Below the pieces are notes generated by a model. That model saw nothing but the letters and a program-made list of their open reading frames with translations. It did not search any database and was not told where the DNA came from. Shown here in pieces: positions 7,286 through 41,942 of a DNA stretch of 45,582 nucleotides. Source of the stretch: Alphaproteobacteria bacterium (GTDB lineage Bacteria > Pseudomonadota > Alphaproteobacteria > UBA8366 > GCA-2717185). The stretch spans positions 1 to 45,582 of the forward strand of contig JBBDQU010000025.1 in the NCBI GenBank assembly GCA_040905865.1. Reading direction: 5' to 3'. The first letter of the stretch is position 1. Each line of letters begins with the position of its first letter. Both the position numbers and the translations under genes were made by a program.

Positions 7286-8158
7286 ATGCCAAGAGACCCT
7301 CGCAATCGTTATCCAAGACCGCCGCAGCCCCCGCAACATCAGCCCATGCCGGGATTTACGGCGAAGATGGAAGATGAGCCGGACCACGGCGAAGAAAGTT
7401 ACCAGGGCAGTGGGAAACTGAAAGATTGCGCCGCGATCATCACCGGGGCGGATTCCGGCATCGGTCGCGCCGTAGCAATTGCATATGCACGCGAAGGCGC
7501 CGACGTACTGGTGGCGTATTATTCAGAAGACGAAGACGCCGAAGAAACCAAGAAATGGGTTGAAAAGGCGGGGCGGCGAGCCGTTCTGGTGAAGTGCGAT
7601 ATTAAAGAGGAATCGCAGTGCAAAAGTATAGTCACGCGCGCCCTGGATGAGTTCGGGAAGGTGGACATCCTCGTAAATAACGCCGCGCATCAGGCCACAT
7701 TCGACAGCATAGAGGATATCACCGCCGAAGAATGGGATATTACGCTGCGAACTAACCTGTCGGGCATGTTCTTTCTGTGCAAGGCGGCGATTCCACACAT
7801 GAAGCCGGGCAGCTCCATCATCAACACATCGTCGATCAATGCCACCGATCCGAGCCCGGGACTGCTTCCCTATGCGATGACAAAGGGAGCAATCGCCAAC
7901 TTTTCCGGCGGGCTGTCGGGTCTGCTGGCCGACAAGGGCATTCGCGTGAACGCCGTCGCTCCGGGTCCCATCTGGACTCCTCTCATTCCTTCCACCATGC
8001 CGGAGGAAAAGGTTGAGAATTTCGGGAAGTCGACACCGCTCGGACGCGCCGGTCAACCGGCCGAACTGGCGGCAGCCTATGTCTATCTCGCTTCAGACGA
8101 TGCGAGTTACGTGACAGGCGCGCTGCTCCCGGTAACAGGCGGGCGGCTGATGCTGTGA
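7286..8158 (+). CDS. SDR oxidoreductase of the YghA/YhdF (general stress) type
   Basis: A 290-residue SDR with the roughly 45-residue Pro-rich N-terminal extension (NRYPRPPQPPQHQPMPG) typical of the YghA/YhdF/glucose-dehydrogenase-like group, often annotated as general-stress proteins. TGADSGIG is at 53-60, NNAA at 131-134, catalytic Ser183, and Tyr196/Lys200 in YAMTK. AGGAGG lies about 10 bases before the ATG. It is the last gene of the hemerythrin operon and converges with the flavodoxin-type gene after about 50 bases. A probable role is aldehyde or ketone reduction under stress. Confidence 0.9.
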   Translation: MPRDPRNRYPRPPQPPQHQPMPGFTAKMEDEPDHGEESYQGSGKLKDCAAIITGADSGIGRAVAIAYAREGADVLVAYYSEDEDAEETKKWVEKAGRRAVLVKCDIKEESQCKSIVTRALDEFGKVDILVNNAAHQATFDSIEDITAEEWDITLRTNLSGMFFLCKAAIPHMKPGSSIINTSSINATDPSPGLLPYAMTKGAIANFSGGLSGLLADKGIRVNAVAPGPIWTPLIPSTMPEEKVENFGKSTPLGRAGQPAELAAAYVYLASDDASYVTGALLPVTGGRLML

Positions 8159-25011: not shown

Positions 25012-26514
25012 TTACGCGTCGCCGCGGCGCTCCCGACGCAGCCGGCGCAGCCAGACGAAGAACGGAAACAGGACGGCGGCCAACGCGAACGCCAGGATCG
25101 TGGCGCTGATCGGCCGGGTCACGAATATATCCAGTTCGCCCAGCGACATCTGCAACGATTGCCGCATCGCTCTTTCAAGCATCGGTCCAAGCACCAGCGC
25201 AAGGACCAGCGGCGCGGGCGGATAGCCGTACAGGCGCATGACGAAACCAATACCGCCGAAGACGATCGTCACGCCCACGTTGAAGAGACTGTTCTCCACG
25301 CTGTAGACGCCGAACAGTGCAATGCCGATGATGATGGGAATCAGAATGCTGTAGGGAACCCGAAGGATACTGGCGAACATCGGGGCCAGCGGCAGGTTCA
25401 GGATCAGCAACATCACGTTGCCGATATACATGCTGGCGACAAGCCCCCAGAACACGTCGGGATGGGTGCTCATCAGCAGCGGTCCGGGCTGCATGCCGTA
25501 TAATGTAAGCGCACCCAGCATTACCGCGGTCGTGCCGGACCCGGGAATGCCGAGCGCCATCAGGGGGATCAGCGCGCCGGTGGATGCCGCGTTGTTCGCG
25601 GATTCCGGCGCGGCGACGCCTTCTATGACGCCGGTACCGAACTTCTCGGGCCGTTTGGAAACCCGCTTTTCGGTAGCATAGGCAAGGAACGAGGAGATTG
25701 TAGCGCCCGCGCCCGGCAGCATGCCCACGAAGAAACCGATAGCCGTGCCGCGGGTAATAGCGCCGCTTGAATCGCGCCAGTCCTGCCGCGTGGGGAGCAA
25801 CCCGCTTAATTTCGCCTTGATCGGCTTTGAACGGATCGGACGATAAATATTGAAGAGAAGTTCGCCCACGGCGAAAAGCCCGACGGCGACCGGGAGAAAA
25901 TCAAGCCCGTCCAGAAGGTTTACGTTGTCGAAGGTAAAACGGGGGGCGCCGATCATAAGGTCGATGCCGATCGTACCGAGAGTCAGTCCGACGACCGCCA
26001 TGAGCAGGCCCTTGATCATGGACCCGCCTGTCAGGCTCGCGAGCGTCGTAAGTCCGAGCAGCATGAGTGCAAAATACTCCGGTGGACCGAAGGTGATTGC
26101 AAACTCGGCAAGGGGCGGCGCCGCAATCATCAGCAGAACCACGCCTACGGTGCCGGCAATGAACGAACCGATCGCGGCCATCCCAAGGGCTGCACCGGCG
26201 CGTCCTTTCAGCGCCATCTGATACCCGTCCAGTGTGGTCATCACCGACGCCGATTCACCGGGCGTGTTGATCAGGACGGACGTTATGGTGCCCCCGTACA
26301 TTGCGCCGTAATAGATGCCGGCCAGCATGATCATTGCGGTGACAGGTGGCATGCCGAACGTCACCGGCAGCAGCACCGCAACGCCGGCAGACGGGCCGAT
26401 TCCGGGCAGGGCGCCGATCAGGGTGCCCAAAAAAACGCCGGCGAAGGCGAACATCAGGTTGGTCGGCGTAAACGCAATAGAAAAGCCGAGAAACAGATCG
26501 TTAAACAAATCCAT
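25012..26514 (-). CDS. tctA: Tripartite tricarboxylate transporter large permease, TctA family
   Basis: A 500-residue polytopic membrane protein with the TctA hallmark segments GTLIGALPGIGPSAGVAVLL near the N-terminus and GMLPGAGATISSFLAYATE in the middle, plus ALGIPGSGTTAVMLGAL. It is the large permease of a TTT uptake system, driven by the ion gradient and fed by the periplasmic TctC. Its order after tctC and tctB, all on the minus strand, is the usual one. The stop is 144 bases before the ketopantoate-reductase-like gene. Confidence 0.93.
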   Translation of the reverse strand: MDLFNDLFLGFSIAFTPTNLMFAFAGVFLGTLIGALPGIGPSAGVAVLLPVTFGMPPVTAMIMLAGIYYGAMYGGTITSVLINTPGESASVMTTLDGYQMALKGRAGAALGMAAIGSFIAGTVGVVLLMIAAPPLAEFAITFGPPEYFALMLLGLTTLASLTGGSMIKGLLMAVVGLTLGTIGIDLMIGAPRFTFDNVNLLDGLDFLPVAVGLFAVGELLFNIYRPIRSKPIKAKLSGLLPTRQDWRDSSGAITRGTAIGFFVGMLPGAGATISSFLAYATEKRVSKRPEKFGTGVIEGVAAPESANNAASTGALIPLMALGIPGSGTTAVMLGALTLYGMQPGPLLMSTHPDVFWGLVASMYIGNVMLLILNLPLAPMFASILRVPYSILIPIIIGIALFGVYSVENSLFNVGVTIVFGGIGFVMRLYGYPPAPLVLALVLGPMLERAMRQSLQMSLGELDIFVTRPISATILAFALAAVLFPFFVWLRRLRRERRGDA

Positions 26515-26538
26515 GGCGAATTCCAGCTTCCCGGTGGT

Positions 26539-27012
26539 TTAAAAGCCCAGGGGGCCGCTCGGCACAGGCACGTCCAGAAACAGGACGAATACCAGATAAA
26601 CGAAGCAGACCGTGGCCGCGCTTGTTCCGATTGCCGCGGTGTAGGACAGCCGTTGTACGCCGAGCGTAAGGAATAACAGAAAGAAGAAGAGTGCTATCGC
26701 GAGACCGACCCAGGGCACGAGGATCAGGAATCCGACAAGGCCGACCAGAGCCAACGCCACGCGCAACAGGCCATGCGGTTCAAGCGCATCCGGATTTTCC
26801 CCTTCATCCGCCGGCTGTGGTTTCCGCGCGCTGGTCAACGCAACGCCCACCATCAGTGCGGTAAGGATCAGGCCGATGACGCTGAGCCATATCGGCGCGA
26901 AGCCGGGCCCGGGCGCGAACTCGGTACCGTACTGGAAGCTGCTTGCCTCCCAAATGACGGCACTGAATCCGAGCCCGAGCAGGAGGCCGGCAATGACGTC
27001 GGCGCGAGTCAT
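26539..27012 (-). CDS. tctB: Tripartite tricarboxylate transporter small permease, TctB family
   Basis: A 157-residue membrane protein with about four hydrophobic helices (for example VIAGLLLGLGFSAVIWEASS at the N-terminus and GLAIALFFFLLFLTLGVQRL later) and the YGTEFAPGPGFAPIWLSV loop seen in TctB proteins. I start at the ATG at 27012; the frame extends to 27222, but that overlaps tctC and reads as shadow. It is 24 bases before tctA. Confidence 0.87.
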   Translation of the reverse strand: MTRADVIAGLLLGLGFSAVIWEASSFQYGTEFAPGPGFAPIWLSVIGLILTALMVGVALTSARKPQPADEGENPDALEPHGLLRVALALVGLVGFLILVPWVGLAIALFFFLLFLTLGVQRLSYTAAIGTSAATVCFVYLVFVLFLDVPVPSGPLGF

Positions 27013-27055
27013 GAACGTATGCCCGCGCCGCGCGCCCTGTGCTGTGACATTTTGC

Positions 27056-28066
27056 CTACTGCTTCTTGGCGATGCCGAGTTCCGTGAGAATCTCGGTATA
27101 ATACTGGTGCTGATTGGCGATATACTTTTCGGCATCCTCGCCGATCCGCAACAGCGGGCGCAGACCATTATCGTCCATGTATTTTTTGAAACCTTCGGAT
27201 TTGAACAGGCCGACCATGACATTCTGCCAGAACAGCGATTGCTGGTCTGTCAGACCCGCCGGAAGGATCGCGCCGCGATGCTGTTCCAGCGTTACATCGT
27301 AACCCTGTTCGCGGGCCGTCGGCACATCGGGCCAGTTCTCCAGCCGTTCCGGTGACAGCATGGCCAGCGGCCGCAGCCTTCCGGCGGCAACCAACTGCGC
27401 GGCCTCGCTGGGATTCGGGCCTGCCATGTCGACGCTGCCGCCCAGCAGGGCCGCGTTCGCTTCGCCGCCGCTGTTGAATACGATATAGTTGAGCTGAATT
27501 CCCGCGGCCTTTTCCAGGCGATTTTCGATGATATTGTCGGATGAACCGACGCTGCTGCCGCCGATGCGGATGCCGTTCGGTTTCTGCTTCGCCGCTTCAA
27601 CGAGATCCTTCAGCGTCTTGTAGGGAGACTCGGTGCGCACGACAGCCACGTAATCCTCGACGCACAGGACAGCGACGTTGATGAAATCCTTGTAACTGAC
27701 CGGCGAATGTCCCTGGATGGGAGTCGTGAGGTAGGAACTAGTCGCGGTCGCAATGACATGCGGATCGCCCTTCTTGGTATTCACATACGAATAAGCGACC
27801 GCGCCGCTGCCGCCCGGTTTGTTGACGACATTGATCGGTACATCGACCAGACCTTCCTTTGCCAAGATGCTGGCCATGGTGCGGGCGAACAGATCGCTGC
27901 CGCCGCCAGGCGCTGCCTGGACGACAAATTCCACGGCGCGATCAGGCTTCCAGGTCGACTTGGGCAAGTCCGGAATGGCATTGCCGCTTTGCGCGAAGGT
28001 TGCAGTCACCGGTAAAGCGGCGATTGCAACGGTTGCGAATACGAAACGAAGAACCGGCTTGAGCAT
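27056..28066 (-). CDS. tctC: Tripartite tricarboxylate transporter periplasmic substrate-binding protein, TctC/Bug family
   Basis: A 336-residue protein with a signal peptide (1-26, ending TATFAQ) and the Bug/TctC pattern: PDRAVEFVVQAAPGGGSDLF, then VNKPGGSGAVAYSYV, and a late LRPLAMLSPERLENWPDVPT. I start at 28066 because GGGGGAG lies 8 bases upstream; an ATG at 28090 is less likely. It heads the tctCBA operon. The ligand is probably a carboxylate degraded by the neighbouring enzymes, but cannot be named. Confidence 0.9.
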   Translation of the reverse strand: MLKPVLRFVFATVAIAALPVTATFAQSGNAIPDLPKSTWKPDRAVEFVVQAAPGGGSDLFARTMASILAKEGLVDVPINVVNKPGGSGAVAYSYVNTKKGDPHVIATATSSYLTTPIQGHSPVSYKDFINVAVLCVEDYVAVVRTESPYKTLKDLVEAAKQKPNGIRIGGSSVGSSDNIIENRLEKAAGIQLNYIVFNSGGEANAALLGGSVDMAGPNPSEAAQLVAAGRLRPLAMLSPERLENWPDVPTAREQGYDVTLEQHRGAILPAGLTDQQSLFWQNVMVGLFKSEGFKKYMDDNGLRPLLRIGEDAEKYIANQHQYYTEILTELGIAKKQ

Positions 28067-28378
28067 CTCAGTTACTCCCCCAAGTATCATGCTGCGTTCA
28101 GACTGCAGGCTTCTAAAAGCTGTCCATCCTGCCGTTAATACGGGAAGACTGCCCCGGTTTCGGGCATCGTGTCAATCGAAGTCAAACGGAACCAGAAAGT
28201 GTCTGGTATAAGCGTCGACCTCGGGCGCGCTCCGGGTGCCGATGGGGCGGCAGGGAACACCTACGGCAGGTATTTCAGCAAAAACCGGGCGGCTTTTTTC
28301 CGGAGACGGGGCGCCTTTGTGGTTGGCAAGCGATTTTGCCGCGTGACTGTTTCGATATAACGCAATAAAACCAGCGGT
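28067..28378. other. Intergenic region between tctC and the selenocysteine tRNA
   Basis: This 312-bp stretch should hold the tctCBA promoter and the tRNA promoter. A small palindrome CCAGA-aagtg-TCTGG lies near 28192. Just before the tRNA, 28349-28372 is AT-richer (TTTCGATATAACGCAATAAAA) and may be the tRNA promoter -10 region. No gene is supported; the minus-strand frame crossing this area and the tRNA is spurious. Confidence 0.4.
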
Positions 28379-28474
28379 GGAGGAGCATCGTTCCCCGGTG
28401 GGGCGCTCGGTCTTCAAAACCGTTGAGGGGCGTTCAACGTGCCTGGTGGGTTCGACTCCCACGCTCTTCCGCCA
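28379..28474 (+). tRNA. selC: tRNA-Sec (anticodon TCA)
   Basis: A 96-base tRNA with selenocysteine-tRNA features. An 8-bp acceptor stem (GGAGGAGC with GCTCTTCC, one G-U) is followed by G and an encoded CCA. There is a long D stem (TCCCC/GGGG), and the anticodon loop CTTCAAA has TCA at 28414-28416. A long variable arm and a T stem-loop GTGGG-TTCGACT-CCCAC complete it. The TCA anticodon reads UGA as selenocysteine with SelB. It lies 3 bases from the stop of the convergent LysR gene and 2.2 kb from a selenoprotein gene. selA, selB and selD are not in this window. Confidence 0.95.
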
Positions 28475-28476
28475 AT

Positions 28477-29385
28477 TCATTTTCCCGCGAAGGCGGGCCG
28501 CAGCAGGTCCAGGAATCCCTGCGCGGCCGGCGACAGGGCGCGGTCCCGGCTGGTCAGCAGGCCCACCCGCCGGGTGATTCCGGGCTCGGCCAGCGGCGCG
28601 GCGCCCAGCGCCGGGTCGTCCGCCGCCGGGGCCGCGCCGGCCGGGACGATGGCGACTCCCAGCCCCTCGCGGATGAAACGGTACAGCGTCGCGAACTGGT
28701 TGACCGTGATATCATAGGCGGTGGACACCTCGGCCGCGACCGCGGCGGTATCGATTATCCGCCGAATGCCCGCCTCCGGGGTCAGCGATATCACCGTTTC
28801 GCCGCGCAACTGCGCCATGGCGATGCTTTTCCGACCGGACAACCGGTGATTCCGGGGCATGACGACGGTAAAGGTTTCGCTGCGCAGCAACTCCCCGGCG
28901 ACAGCGCCGTGCAGGGTATCGACATCGCCGATGCCGAAATCCGCGATTCCGGTCCGGACGTCCTCATGCACCAGCGCCTGGACGTTTTCGCGCAGCTGGA
29001 TCTGGATGGCGGGATAGCGTGTCCGGTAGGCGGCGATGACCGGCGGCAGCACGCTGTAGGCGACCGACATCAGCGATGCGACGATCAACTGGCCGCGCTG
29101 CCGCCCCGCCAGGTCCTGCATGTTGCGGATGCCCAGGGTCAGGTCGCCGAGCAGGCGTTCGGCGACGGGGACGAATTCCCGCCCCGCGGCCGTCAGCGCC
29201 ACATGGCGGGTCGTGCGGGCGAACAGGTCGACCCCCAGCGCCGCCTCGACCTGTTTGATCGTCCGCGTCAGCGCGGGTTGCGATATGTCCAGATGGCTGG
29301 CCGCCGCCACGAAACTGCCGAACTGCGCCAGGGTGGTGACGGCGCGCAACTGGCGGGTGCCGAGTTCCGGGGGGCCTGAGTCCAT
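28477..29385 (-). CDS. LysR-family transcriptional regulator
   Basis: A 302-residue LysR regulator with an N-terminal winged helix-turn-helix (about 10-70; FVAAASHLDISQPALTRTIK) and a C-terminal periplasmic-binding-like effector domain (GQLIVASLMSVAYSVLPPVI onward). I start at 29385; a longer frame to 29478 begins with an unlikely Tyr/Ile-rich stretch over the promoter. It is divergent from the operon with the selenoprotein, the classical LysR layout, and is likely to control that operon. The effector is unknown. Confidence 0.9.
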   Translation of the reverse strand: MDSGPPELGTRQLRAVTTLAQFGSFVAAASHLDISQPALTRTIKQVEAALGVDLFARTTRHVALTAAGREFVPVAERLLGDLTLGIRNMQDLAGRQRGQLIVASLMSVAYSVLPPVIAAYRTRYPAIQIQLRENVQALVHEDVRTGIADFGIGDVDTLHGAVAGELLRSETFTVVMPRNHRLSGRKSIAMAQLRGETVISLTPEAGIRRIIDTAAVAAEVSTAYDITVNQFATLYRFIREGLGVAIVPAGAAPAADDPALGAAPLAEPGITRRVGLLTSRDRALSPAAQGFLDLLRPAFAGK

Positions 29386-29516
29386 GTGACGGCTCCGATG
29401 GAAATTAAGATTAATAACAATTATGGAATAATAATCGTTATACATAAAGTATTGATAATAAGATATCCCGTGACGCATACTGCGCCCTCGGATTTTACCA
29501 GACCAACCGGCCGGGG
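29386..29516. promoter_or_regulatory. AT-rich LysR-type divergent control region
   Basis: This 131-bp AT-rich gap lies between the LysR gene and the selenoprotein operon. It contains the palindrome ATTAT-GGA-ATAAT at 29420-29432 and flanking ATAAC (29414-29418) and GTTAT (29437-29441). These fit LysR T-N11-A style sites, so this is the likely operator. Confidence 0.5.
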
Positions 29517-30653
29517 ATGGAAGTCATGAGCAGCGATGCGGCAGTCACCACACAGGCGTTTCCGTCGAACGGGCGCGTCGCCGACGATACCGACCTGGTT
29601 GAATGGTATTATGCGCAGGGTTTTTCCGACGGGTTTCCCGTCGTGCCGCCGACGCCGGACAAGGTCGAGGCGATGCTGGAAGCGCTGGGCGGCGATCCCG
29701 ACTACCTGGAATGCCGGGTGCCGCCGCGCTGGGGCGGGCTGACCCGGCAGGTGCTGGCGGTCAATATGGTGATGGCCGGCTGCCTGCCGTCCTATGCGCC
29801 GGTGGTGCGCGCGGCGATGCTGGCGCTGACTTCGCAGGCGTTCAACCTGCACGGGGTGCAGGCGACGACCCATATGGCGGCGCCGCTGCTGGTGGTGAAC
29901 GGCCCGATCCGCAATGCAATCGGCATGAATTCGGGCCATAACGTCTTCGGTTCGGGCAACCGCGCCAATGCGACCATCGGCCGGGCGATCCGAATGATCC
30001 TGCTGAATGCCGGCGGCGGTTGGCCGGGTGAACTGGACAAGAGCACCCTGGGTCATCCCGGCAAATACACTTACTGCATCGCCGAGAACGAGGAGGTAGG
30101 CTGCATCGCGCCCTATCACGTCGACAAGGGGTTCGAGGAAACGGATTCAACCGTCTTCGTGATGCCGGCGGAACCGCCGCACAGTGTCACCAACCATGTC
30201 GCCAACGATCCCGAGGGCATCCTCGACAGCATCGTTTCGGCGATGAGCACCATCGCGCACAACAACGCGGTCAGTTCCGGCCATTGCGCCGTCGTGCTGG
30301 GACCGGAACATGCCCGGGTGATGGCGAAATACGAATGGAAACGCCACGATATCCGGCATTATCTGTGGTACCAGGCGCATAACAAATTCGGCGATGTCGC
30401 GTTCCAGCACCGCTACGGCAAGGTCTATAACCGGAGCCTGCCGAAATGGTACAGCCGCCGCGATGGCGACCGGATTCCGGTGGTGCCGACGCCGGATCAC
30501 ATCCATCTCTTCTGCGCCGGCGGCGAAGCCGGGCGGTTTTCCGCCTTCATTCCCGGCTGGGGCCATATGGCCAGCCCGGTGCTGCGTGAAATCAACGGCA
30601 AGTCGCCGCCGGGCGGCGGACCGCAATGCGTTGACGGAACCTGTTACCTGTAA
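29517..30653 (+). CDS. Protein of unknown function, operon partner of a UGSC selenoprotein
   Basis: A 378-residue soluble protein I do not recognise with confidence. Visible features: YYAQGFSDGFPVVPPTPDKV near residue 31, many conserved-looking Gly/Asn motifs (GMNSGHNVFGSGNRANATIG), no signal peptide or membrane helices, and a C-terminal Cys pair in CVDGTCYL (six residues apart), which could form a redox disulfide. The start could be the ATG at 29517 or at 29526. It lies 19 bases before the selenoprotein gene, is divergent from a LysR regulator, and forms a conserved-looking redox unit. It could be a substrate-binding or catalytic subunit whose disulfide is reduced by the selenoprotein; that is inference. 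Confidence 0.7.
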   Translation: MEVMSSDAAVTTQAFPSNGRVADDTDLVEWYYAQGFSDGFPVVPPTPDKVEAMLEALGGDPDYLECRVPPRWGGLTRQVLAVNMVMAGCLPSYAPVVRAAMLALTSQAFNLHGVQATTHMAAPLLVVNGPIRNAIGMNSGHNVFGSGNRANATIGRAIRMILLNAGGGWPGELDKSTLGHPGKYTYCIAENEEVGCIAPYHVDKGFEETDSTVFVMPAEPPHSVTNHVANDPEGILDSIVSAMSTIAHNNAVSSGHCAVVLGPEHARVMAKYEWKRHDIRHYLWYQAHNKFGDVAFQHRYGKVYNRSLPKWYSRRDGDRIPVVPTPDHIHLFCAGGEAGRFSAFIPGWGHMASPVLREINGKSPPGGGPQCVDGTCYL

Positions 30654-30672: not shown

Positions 30673-31230
30673 ATGCCACTCGATACCCCCAACAGCGGTA
30701 TTGCCGTGTTCGACCCGCGCGGCGTGGTCGAGGCGGAGGCGATTCCGATCGGCCGCCGCCACAATACCCTGGCCGGCTTGCGGCTCGGCGTGCTGAGCAA
30801 TCGCAAATGGAACGGCAACAAACTGCTGCGCGCGACCGTGAAGGCGCTGGAAGCCGATACGGAATTCGCCAGCGTCACCTTCTACGAGAAGGAAAGCTTC
30901 TCGAAGAACGCCGACCCGCACCTGCTCGGGGAGATCATAGCGGACAGCGATATTGTGCTGACCGCCATCGGCGACTGAGGCTCCTGTACGTCGTGCTGTA
31001 TGCATGACGCCATCAGCCTCGAAGGCCAGGACCGGGCGACCGCGGTGGTCGTGACGACCGAATTCAAACATGAAGCCGAAGTCCAGCGCGCCGCGCTGGG
31101 CATGGAGGGTCTCGTGCCGGTCGTGATCCAGCATCCGCTCAGCACCCTGTCGGATGAGGAAATCTCGGACCGCGGCGCGGATGCGGCGGCGCAGGCGGTC
31201 CGGATCTGGCTGGGACAGGCCGCCGGTTGA
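30673..31230 (+). CDS. UGSC-motif selenoprotein (UGA at codon 102 = selenocysteine)
   Basis: This is a 185-residue selenoprotein if the in-frame TGA at 30976-30978 is read as Sec102. The flanks read VLTAIGD-U-GSCTSCCMHD, so Sec starts the motif U-G-S-C that names this (seleno)protein family. Reading continues in the same frame for 83 more well-composed residues (AISLEGQDRATAVVVTTEF, HPLSTLSDEEISDRGADAAA) to a stop at 31228. A SECIS-like hairpin follows the UGA directly and a tRNA-Sec gene is nearby. The N-terminal half (WNGNKLLRATVKAL) looks like a Rossmann-type domain. GGGAG precedes the ATG. Ordinary gene calling would truncate it at 30978 or split it in two. The reaction is unknown; a redox role at a UxxC pair is likely. 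Confidence 0.9.
30976..31020 (+). promoter_or_regulatory. Bacterial SECIS element directly after the Sec UGA
   Basis: The mRNA folds just after UGA. The outer stem GAGGCT (30977-30982) pairs with AGCCTC (31015-31020). The apical stem GTCGTGC (30990-30996) pairs with GCATGAC (31002-31008), seven pairs with one G-U. The loop is UGUAU (30997-31001). A G in the first two loop bases, at about 18-20 bases from the UGA, is the known bacterial SECIS rule, and it is met. SelB with Sec-tRNA would bind the loop. All of it lies within coding sequence. Confidence 0.85.

Positions 31231-40232: not shown

Positions 40233-41942
<1,710 letters not shown>

What the first reader, a model, noticed from the sequence alone, without database searches (positions are those of the whole stretch)
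29517..30653. Unrecognised partner of the selenoprotein with a C-terminal Cys pair
The 378-residue protein precedes the selenoprotein by 19 bases and ends CVDGTCYL. A terminal redox-active Cys pair in a partner of a selenoprotein suggests electron transfer between the two. It may define a two-component selenoenzyme of unknown reaction, regulated by the divergent LysR protein.
Basis: inference. Interest (0 to 1): 0.7.

Follow-up and report, generated by a model that had tools for sequence, protein, structure and literature searches.

The report
Partner subunit of a UGSC selenoenzyme
The gene before the selenoprotein encodes its obligate partner, whose flexible tail ends in a redox pair that some Bacillus-group relatives appear to build with selenocysteine, so the two proteins look like a thioredoxin-driven selenium reductase whose substrate is still unknown.

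Summary
The 378-aa ORF at 29517-30653 is real, ends CVDGTCYL and lies 19 nt before a UGSC-family selenoprotein (PF24696). It matches nothing in Pfam, NCBIfam, PHROGs or PDB sequences, but belongs to a large family that almost always sits beside, or is fused to, a UGSC domain. In 398 genomes of the phylum, exactly the same five hold both. The C-x4-C-x2-end tail is kept in all 30 orthologs examined, whether UGSC uses Sec or Cys, and is absent from most paralogs; the family-wide cysteines are C89 and C187. New evidence that the tail is redox-active: in seven Bacillus-group genomes the homolog ends in an in-frame TGA at the second-Cys position (CTDGG-U-QL; U-QC, U-ADC or U-HEC where the first Cys is lost), followed by a covarying SECIS-like hairpin. 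UGSC is a distant relative of the Sec domain of glycine reductase GrdB (UGSCTSC vs UGTCTRC). Relatives carry trxB/trxA in the operon or a thioredoxin-like domain fused to the partner. Best reading: a thioredoxin-dependent, GrdB-like two-subunit reductase in which the tail relays electrons to the active site, as the C-terminal Cys pair of ribonucleotide reductase does. Substrate unknown, probably a small carboxylic acid.

The parts
29517..30653 (+). Partner protein, 378 aa; no family in Pfam, NCBIfam, PHROGs or PDB
   Evidence: AF2 model pLDDT 89.6, pTM 0.89
30627..30650 (+). C-terminal tail CVDGTCYL, Cys pair C371/C376 (C-x4-C-x2-end), predicted disordered
   Evidence: conserved in 30 of 30 orthologs examined; pLDDT under 50 at residues 366-378; predicted Sec at the second position in Bacillus-group homologs
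29781..29783 (+). Core cysteine C89 (MAGC), conserved family-wide
   Evidence: 123 of 127 rows; the exceptions are UGSC-partner fusions with MAGG
30075..30077 (+). Core cysteine C187 (KYTYC), nearly conserved family-wide
   Evidence: 115 of 127 rows
30673..31230 (+). UGSC-family selenoprotein, 185 aa
   Evidence: PF24696 E 5.2e-50, NF041046 above cut-off
30976..30978 (+). Sec codon TGA in GD-U-GSCTSC
30976..31021 (+). Bacterial SECIS-like hairpin after the Sec codon
   Evidence: MFE -24.1 kcal/mol, z -4.77, 0 of 200 shuffles as low
28379..28474 (+). selC, tRNA-Sec (anticodon TCA)
   Evidence: ARAGORN, Rfam RF01852 68.3 bits; also beside 9 orthologous operons
28480..29478 (-). LysR-type regulator, divergent (probable true start near 29385)
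   Evidence: Pfam HTH_1 and LysR_substrate; same neighbour in other orthologous loci
25012..28090 (-). Tripartite tricarboxylate transporter genes by sequence look (TctA 25012-26514, TctB 26539-27222, TctC-like 27056-28090), possible uptake system; link by neighbourhood only
   Evidence: ORFs; TctC/TctA-like genes lie between a partner and a UGSC gene at L022 in the same genome and TctC next to others

Best explanation
The protein is the larger subunit of a two-subunit (seleno)enzyme; the UGSC protein is the Sec-bearing subunit. UGSC is a distant relative of the Sec domain of glycine reductase GrdB (and so of D-proline reductase PrdB). The likely chemistry is the same in kind: the selenolate of U-G-S-C-T-S-C attacks or reductively opens a bond in a small organic acid held by the partner, leaving a Se-S bond. 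Electrons come from NADPH through thioredoxin reductase and thioredoxin. In this subfamily thioredoxin reduces the Cys pair on the partner's flexible C-terminal tail (C371/C376). The tail then swings in and reduces the active site (the Se-S bond of UGSC and/or a C89/C187 disulfide), as the C-terminal Cys pair of ribonucleotide reductase does. Other subfamilies use a thioredoxin-like domain fused to the partner, separate trxA/trxB genes, or a tail with Sec. Shown by computation: obligate pairing, fusions, conserved tail and core cysteines, homology of UGSC to GrdB, Trx genes in relatives, predicted Sec tails with SECIS-like hairpins. Inferred: complex formation in the cell, direction of electron flow, reductive cleavage, substrate class.
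For: Pairing: the same 5 of 398 genomes hold both families, with the genes adjacent (about 1e-11 by chance); neighbours in nearly every locus read; fused as UGSC-partner and partner-UGSC. Complex: read-through AF2 model of partner, linker and UGSC has pTM 0.85 with 61 residues under pLDDT 50, near the ceiling, which implies a defined mutual placement (inference from how pTM is defined). UGSC-GrdB: hhalign score 54.5, E 1.9e-7, Sec aligned with Sec; best of 120 other proteins 23.7, of 60 shuffled GrdB 20.5. Thioredoxin: Roseovarius LysR-partner-UGSC-trxB (a tail-bearing ortholog), Arthrobacter trxB-trxA-partner-UGSC, Variovorax trxB, TrxB-like neighbours with CxxCD motifs at other loci, AhpC/Redoxin-like domain fused to partners. 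Glycine reductase is itself fed by NADPH, TrxR and Trx (PMC3091704), and GrdB has a UxxCxxC motif (PMC13188914). Tail: 30 of 30 orthologs; same geometry in distant fusions L116 CGSQECKI and L197 CKDGICGI; Sec tail in seven Bacillus-group genomes with complementary Cys, synonymous codons after the TGA, hairpin 98.2% paired with 5 of 8 pairs compensatory, SelB in all seven. RNR precedent for a C-terminal Cys pair and for fused redoxins: PMC5704485, PMC6187632 (abstract).
Against: No biochemical data. Within the tail-bearing orthologs only Roseovarius has trxB in the operon. The partner shows no similarity to GrdB or to GrdE, and no pyruvoyl-type subunit was seen in this operon. UGSC-GrdB similarity covers only about 66 residues around and after the Sec. 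The link between tail/Trx modules and a third Cys in UGSC (UGSCTSC vs UGSCTSW) is clade-bound and has no independent support. Most paralogs have neither tail nor fused Trx, so the tail cannot be essential to the basic reaction.
Confidence: 0.65

Rival explanations
1. The pair is a peroxidase or thiol-stress defence enzyme: Sec of UGSC reduces peroxides or disulfides, the partner is a scaffold, and the tail passes thioredoxin electrons on. No carbon substrate is cleaved.
For: Many selenoproteins are peroxidases; a GrdB peroxidase activity is on record (title cited in PMC3091704); trxB/trxA neighbours.
Against: Neighbours are catabolic, not stress-related: CaiB/BaiF CoA-transferases, acyl-CoA dehydrogenase, TctC/TRAP transporters, LysR. 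Many paralogous pairs per genome suggest substrate diversity. The partner has a set of conserved polar residues (D38, N138, N151, R156, E190) that suggests a binding site.
Confidence: 0.2
2. The tail Cys pair is a metal-binding or structural site, not a redox relay.
For: C-x4-C pairs can bind metals; the tail is short and disordered in the model.
Against: Predicted Sec in the tail of Bacillus-group homologs with a covarying hairpin points to redox use. A Cys shifts to the other side of the Sec when the first is lost, which keeps a redox pair rather than a fixed metal geometry. Same geometry as RNR C-terminal pairs.
Confidence: 0.1
3. The partner is a hydro-lyase-like enzyme (class I fumarase-like fold) and UGSC is an accessory repair selenoprotein.
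For: The best PDB matches are class I fumarases (Foldseek E 9.6e-4 for 7xky_A; second look Z 5.4 over 183 residues, rmsd 5.4).
Against: TM-score 0.24 and Z under 8 are within the range of chance arrangements (notes). The core has only two conserved Cys. Fusion and strict pairing suggest a subunit rather than a repair factor.
Confidence: 0.08

Closest known systems
UGSC-containing selenoprotein family (PF24696 / NF041046)
   Different: The partner itself is not in any family library. The 2008 guess of a Trx-like fold for UGSC is not borne out by the model, which looks flavodoxin-like (Foldseek probability 0.99 to flavodoxin 5lji, low TM).
Glycine/betaine/D-proline reductase selenoprotein B (GrdB, PF07355; PrdB)
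   Same: Sec motif UGSCTSC vs UGTCTRC, downstream ...E..G.PT....T......P..HPL... block, hhalign E 1.9e-7; thioredoxin-reductase electron supply.
   Different: UGSC does not hit PF07355; the partner resembles neither GrdB nor the pyruvoyl precursor GrdE; found in aerobic lineages (Mycobacterium, Rhodococcus, Roseovarius).
C-terminal redox tail of ribonucleotide reductase (class I NrdA, monomeric NrdJ)
   Same: Flexible C-terminal Cys pair next to the end, expected to be reduced by thioredoxin; in E. coli NrdA the tail is CESGACKI (from memory), the same C-x4-C-x2-end geometry; fused redoxin domains occur in both.
   Different: No sequence homology of the enzymes; the tail here is sometimes built with Sec.
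Mammalian thioredoxin reductase C-terminal GCUG (from memory)
   Same: Sec next to the C-terminus on a mobile tail paired with a Cys, as in the Bacillus-group homologs.
   Different: Unrelated protein; here it lies in a partner of another selenoprotein.

Membership tests
UGSC family (downstream gene) | Match to PF24696/NF041046 above cut-off with [UC]GSC motif | tested here: met
UGSC family (partner) | Match of the partner itself to PF24696 | tested here: not met
   no Pfam family at E up to 1; 54 relatives scanned, none matches it
GrdB/PrdB glycine-proline reductase family (UGSC subunit) | UxxCxxC Sec motif in the GrdB-type context | tested here: met
   UGSCTSC; hhalign E 1.9e-7 with Sec aligned, controls far lower
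GrdB/PrdB glycine-proline reductase family (UGSC subunit) | Match to the GRDB Pfam domain PF07355 | tested here: not met
   not among hits at E up to 1
GrdB/PrdB glycine-proline reductase family (partner) | Partner homologous to GrdB or the pyruvoyl precursor GrdE | tested here: not met
   hhalign probability 0.4 against each
GrdB/PrdB glycine-proline reductase family (system) | Electrons from thioredoxin reductase/thioredoxin | tested here: inconclusive
   trxB/trxA in operons of relatives and fused Trx-like domains, none next to the window's operon
GrdB/PrdB glycine-proline reductase family (system) | Reductive cleavage of a C-N or like bond | not testable with these tools
   needs enzymology
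RNR-type C-terminal redox tail (works like) | Conserved Cys pair within the last residues on a flexible tail | tested here: met
RNR-type C-terminal redox tail (works like) | Tail reduced by thioredoxin and re-reduces the active site | not testable with these tools
   needs enzymology; predicted Sec in the tail of relatives supports redox use
Class I fumarase-like fold (partner) | Shared fold | tested here: inconclusive
   Foldseek E 9.6e-4, TM 0.24; Z 5.4

The most novel reading that the evidence does not exclude
A large, unnamed class of thioredoxin-coupled (seleno)reductases built from a GrdB-type Sec subunit and a new partner fold, in which the partner carries its own mobile redox tail, and in Bacillus-group bacteria that tail is itself a selenocysteine tail: a second, unrecognised selenoprotein family in which two selenoproteins work as one enzyme.
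Probability: 0.55. Interest if true: 0.85.

Novelty: new variant of a known kind. Interest (0 to 1): 0.72.

Why it matters
[quoted passage not shown] Naming its obligate partner, its likely electron donor and its relation to glycine reductase turns that open question into a directly testable one. The predicted Sec tail, if shown by mass spectrometry, would add a new selenoprotein family that annotation pipelines would truncate by a few residues, and a rare case of selenocysteine at a mobile C-terminus in bacteria.

Tried and rejected
Pfam, NCBIfam, PHROGs and PDB sequence searches with the partner: no hit. Homology of the partner to GrdB or GrdE: none. Link between tail/Trx modules and a third Cys in UGSC: strong by counts (Fisher p 2e-11) but only about three independent contrasts on the tree, so rejected as independent evidence. 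Viral contigs: no relatives. A first fusion alignment put the UGSC rows on the partner, so it was not used. PDB fold matches: weak, inconclusive; chorismate-mutase, tubulin and encapsulin rows are partial. The possible Sec tail of L158 (KIDC-TGA-TAG) has no convincing hairpin, left open. Single-sequence folding of the L069 tail hairpin was not significant (z -0.7); only the seven-genome comparison made the case.

Full report
Observation. The ORF 29517-30653 is present as described (378 aa, ends CVDGTCYL) and precedes the next ATG by 19 bases. The next gene is a UGSC-family protein with an in-frame TGA in GD-U-GSCTSC (PF24696 E 5e-50, NF041046 above cut-off) and a strong hairpin directly after it (z -4.8). 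selC lies at 28379-28474, and selA and selB are elsewhere in the genome, so Sec decoding is available. The partner matches nothing in Pfam, NCBIfam, PHROGs or PDB sequences.

A family of partners. The partner has orthologs at 61-91% identity and many paralogs at 30-48%, with several copies per genome in the window's family. They occur in Pseudomonadota, Acidobacteriota, Chloroflexota, Actinomycetota, Bacillota, Natrialba and others. Nearly every copy examined has a UGSC gene next to it, usually with TGA, sometimes with a Cys codon. A search of 398 genomes of the phylum with each family independently gave exactly the same five genomes (about 1e-11 by chance if independent). The two are also fused: UGSC-partner with an internal Sec (L024, L088, L091, L104, L116, L120) and partner-UGSC (L088 6959-8596).

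Which cysteines matter. Across 127 partner sequences C89 (MAGC) is kept in 123 and C187 (KYTYC) in 115. The tail pair is a subfamily trait: 30 of 30 orthologs keep C-x4-C-x2-end, and most paralogs lack it. On the tree the tail needs two changes. It persists when UGSC switches between Sec and Cys (2 switches among tail rows), so it does not depend on selenium in UGSC. The same geometry recurs in distant fusions: CGSQECKI in L116 and CKDGICGI in L197.

Selenocysteine in the tail of relatives. The Bacillus piscicola homolog (L069) ends ...SCTDGG-TGA-QL-TAA, i.e. C-x4-U-x2-end. All seven Bacillus-group genomes with this homolog (its own and six relatives) have a TGA at this place followed by two or three codons and a stop: CTDGG-U-QL, CTGGG-U-QL, CTGDG-U-QL, TGFT-U-QC (twice), TGFT-U-ADC, TGFT-U-HEC. 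Where the upstream Cys is lost, a Cys appears after the TGA. QL is encoded by CAA TTG in two and CAG CTT in one, with different stops, which is a coding signature. A hairpin follows: 8 pairs, 98.2% of cells paired, 5 of 8 pairs with changes on both sides, covariation score 0.70 against 0.26 in shuffles (0 of 500), and no slid register comes near. It resembles the hairpin after the UGSC TGA of the same genomes in place and 3-nt loop. All seven genomes have SelB above cut-off. On its own the L069 hairpin is not significant; the comparison carries the claim. The partner is therefore probably itself a selenoprotein there, and the tail is a redox device.

UGSC and glycine reductase. A true GrdB from a related genome (L121) reads ...LTSTUGTCTRCGATIVKELERAGLPTAHIC...IVPSVAIPHPLGDP. 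The UGSC profile aligns to it with Sec on Sec, E 1.9e-7, score 54.5; 120 unrelated proteins reach at most 23.7 and 60 shuffles of GrdB at most 20.5. Published work notes the UxxCxxC motif of GrdB (PMC13188914). The modelled UGSC domain is flavodoxin-like rather than thioredoxin-like (low TM). The partner is not related to GrdB or GrdE by sequence.

Electron donor. In Roseovarius sp. THAF8 the order is LysR, partner (62% identity, tail CADGVCAL), UGSC, trxB; in Arthrobacter sp. ERGS1:01 trxB, trxA, partner, UGSC; in Variovorax sp. SRS16 trxB is near. Of 104 loci, 14 have a TrxB-like gene close by; the twelve read in full carry a CxxCD motif, and the one in Rhodococcus scores above the curated TrxR cut-off and is followed by a thioredoxin. 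Some partners carry an N-terminal thioredoxin-like domain (AhpC-TSA 56.5 bits in L086, 28.8 in L114; others below cut-off). Glycine reductase is fed the same way (PMC3091704). The C-terminal Cys pair of ribonucleotide reductase, on a flexible tail, is reduced by thioredoxin or glutaredoxin and re-reduces the active site (PMC5704485), and a glutaredoxin domain fused to an RNR subunit can act as the reductant (PMC6187632, abstract). The same two solutions, tail or fused redoxin, are seen here.

Structure. The partner is modelled with pLDDT 89.6 and pTM 0.89; residues 366-378 are disordered. No solved fold matches clearly: class I fumarases are best but weak. To look at the pair, the natural read-through of the Minwuiaceae locus L043 (partner, intergenic linker, UGSC; stops read as residues only for modelling) was folded: pLDDT 86.7 and pTM 0.85 although 61 residues are under pLDDT 50. 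If the two domains were placed at random the pTM would be near 0.6; 0.85 is close to the ceiling (inference from the definition of pTM), so a defined interface is predicted. Coordinates are not given by the tool, so the Sec to C89/C187/tail distances remain untested.

Context. The LysR gene is a divergent or adjacent neighbour in about a third of the orthologous loci, also in the Roseovarius operon. selC is beside the operon in nine orthologous loci, and selB-like and selA-like genes (judged by sequence) in seven and five. CaiB/BaiF CoA-transferase genes follow or flank several, with acyl-CoA dehydrogenase, TctC or TRAP genes. In the window's own genome, TctC- and TctA-like genes lie between a partner and its UGSC gene (L022). 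This points to uptake and breakdown of carboxylic acids (inference).

Mechanism. Shown by computation: pairing, fusion, conserved cysteines, GrdB-type Sec domain, thioredoxin genes, predicted Sec tails. Inferred: NADPH -> TrxB -> TrxA -> tail C371/C376 -> Se-S or C89/C187 -> reductive cleavage of a substrate bound between the subunits. Confidence: obligate complex 0.95, thioredoxin-driven reductase with GrdB-like chemistry 0.7, tail as mobile relay 0.75, carboxylic acid substrate 0.45.

Novelty. UGSC and a UGSC fusion with an unnamed domain were known (PMC2398784). I found no report of the partner family, its thioredoxin operons, its tail or the Sec tail in the papers that could be searched; most subscription papers are not held. 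I rate it a new variant of a known kind, the Sec-dependent, thioredoxin-coupled reductases.

Noticed in passing
L163-L169 (e.g. L069, TGA near 8005): Probable unrecognised selenoprotein: Bacillus-group partner homologs with a C-terminal Sec and a covarying SECIS-like hairpin; ordinary gene calls would stop a few residues early.
   Followed up: yes
window 28379-28474 and nine orthologous loci (L025-L030, L043, L044, L061): selC sits beside the partner-UGSC operon, with selA/selB-like genes near in several: the operon keeps company with the Sec machinery.
   Followed up: partly
G000 contigs C8, C25, C37, C40, C85: The window's genome holds five UGSC genes, all with TGA, each with a partner relative, one as a UGSC-partner fusion (C40).
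   Followed up: yes
L122-L130: Large expansion of roughly 400-aa proteins matching the C-terminal half of PF07355 with a TGA in the motif PV-U-PNCTRAV, several per genome, in the same families of bacteria; function unknown.
   Followed up: no
L121 (G009:C421): A glycine/betaine-type reductase operon (GrdE-like, GrdB with Sec) in a genome of the same family as the window's.
   Followed up: no
window 40388-40672 (-): Rfam 5_ureB_sRNA match (84.5 bits), a family described from Helicobacter (from memory), downstream of urea/amide ABC transporter-like genes.
   Followed up: no
L155 (G196): A paralog with a different C-terminal Cys pair (GVCIDCEPPKA), UGSCSSC and a LysR about 45-50% identical to the window's.
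   Followed up: no
L197 (G1033): A partner homolog in Bacillota with an N-terminal extension, ending CKDGICGI: the same tail geometry far from the main clade.
   Followed up: partly
L158 (G368): Partner ends KIDC-TGA-TAG, a possible C-terminal Cys-Sec; no convincing hairpin.
   Followed up: partly
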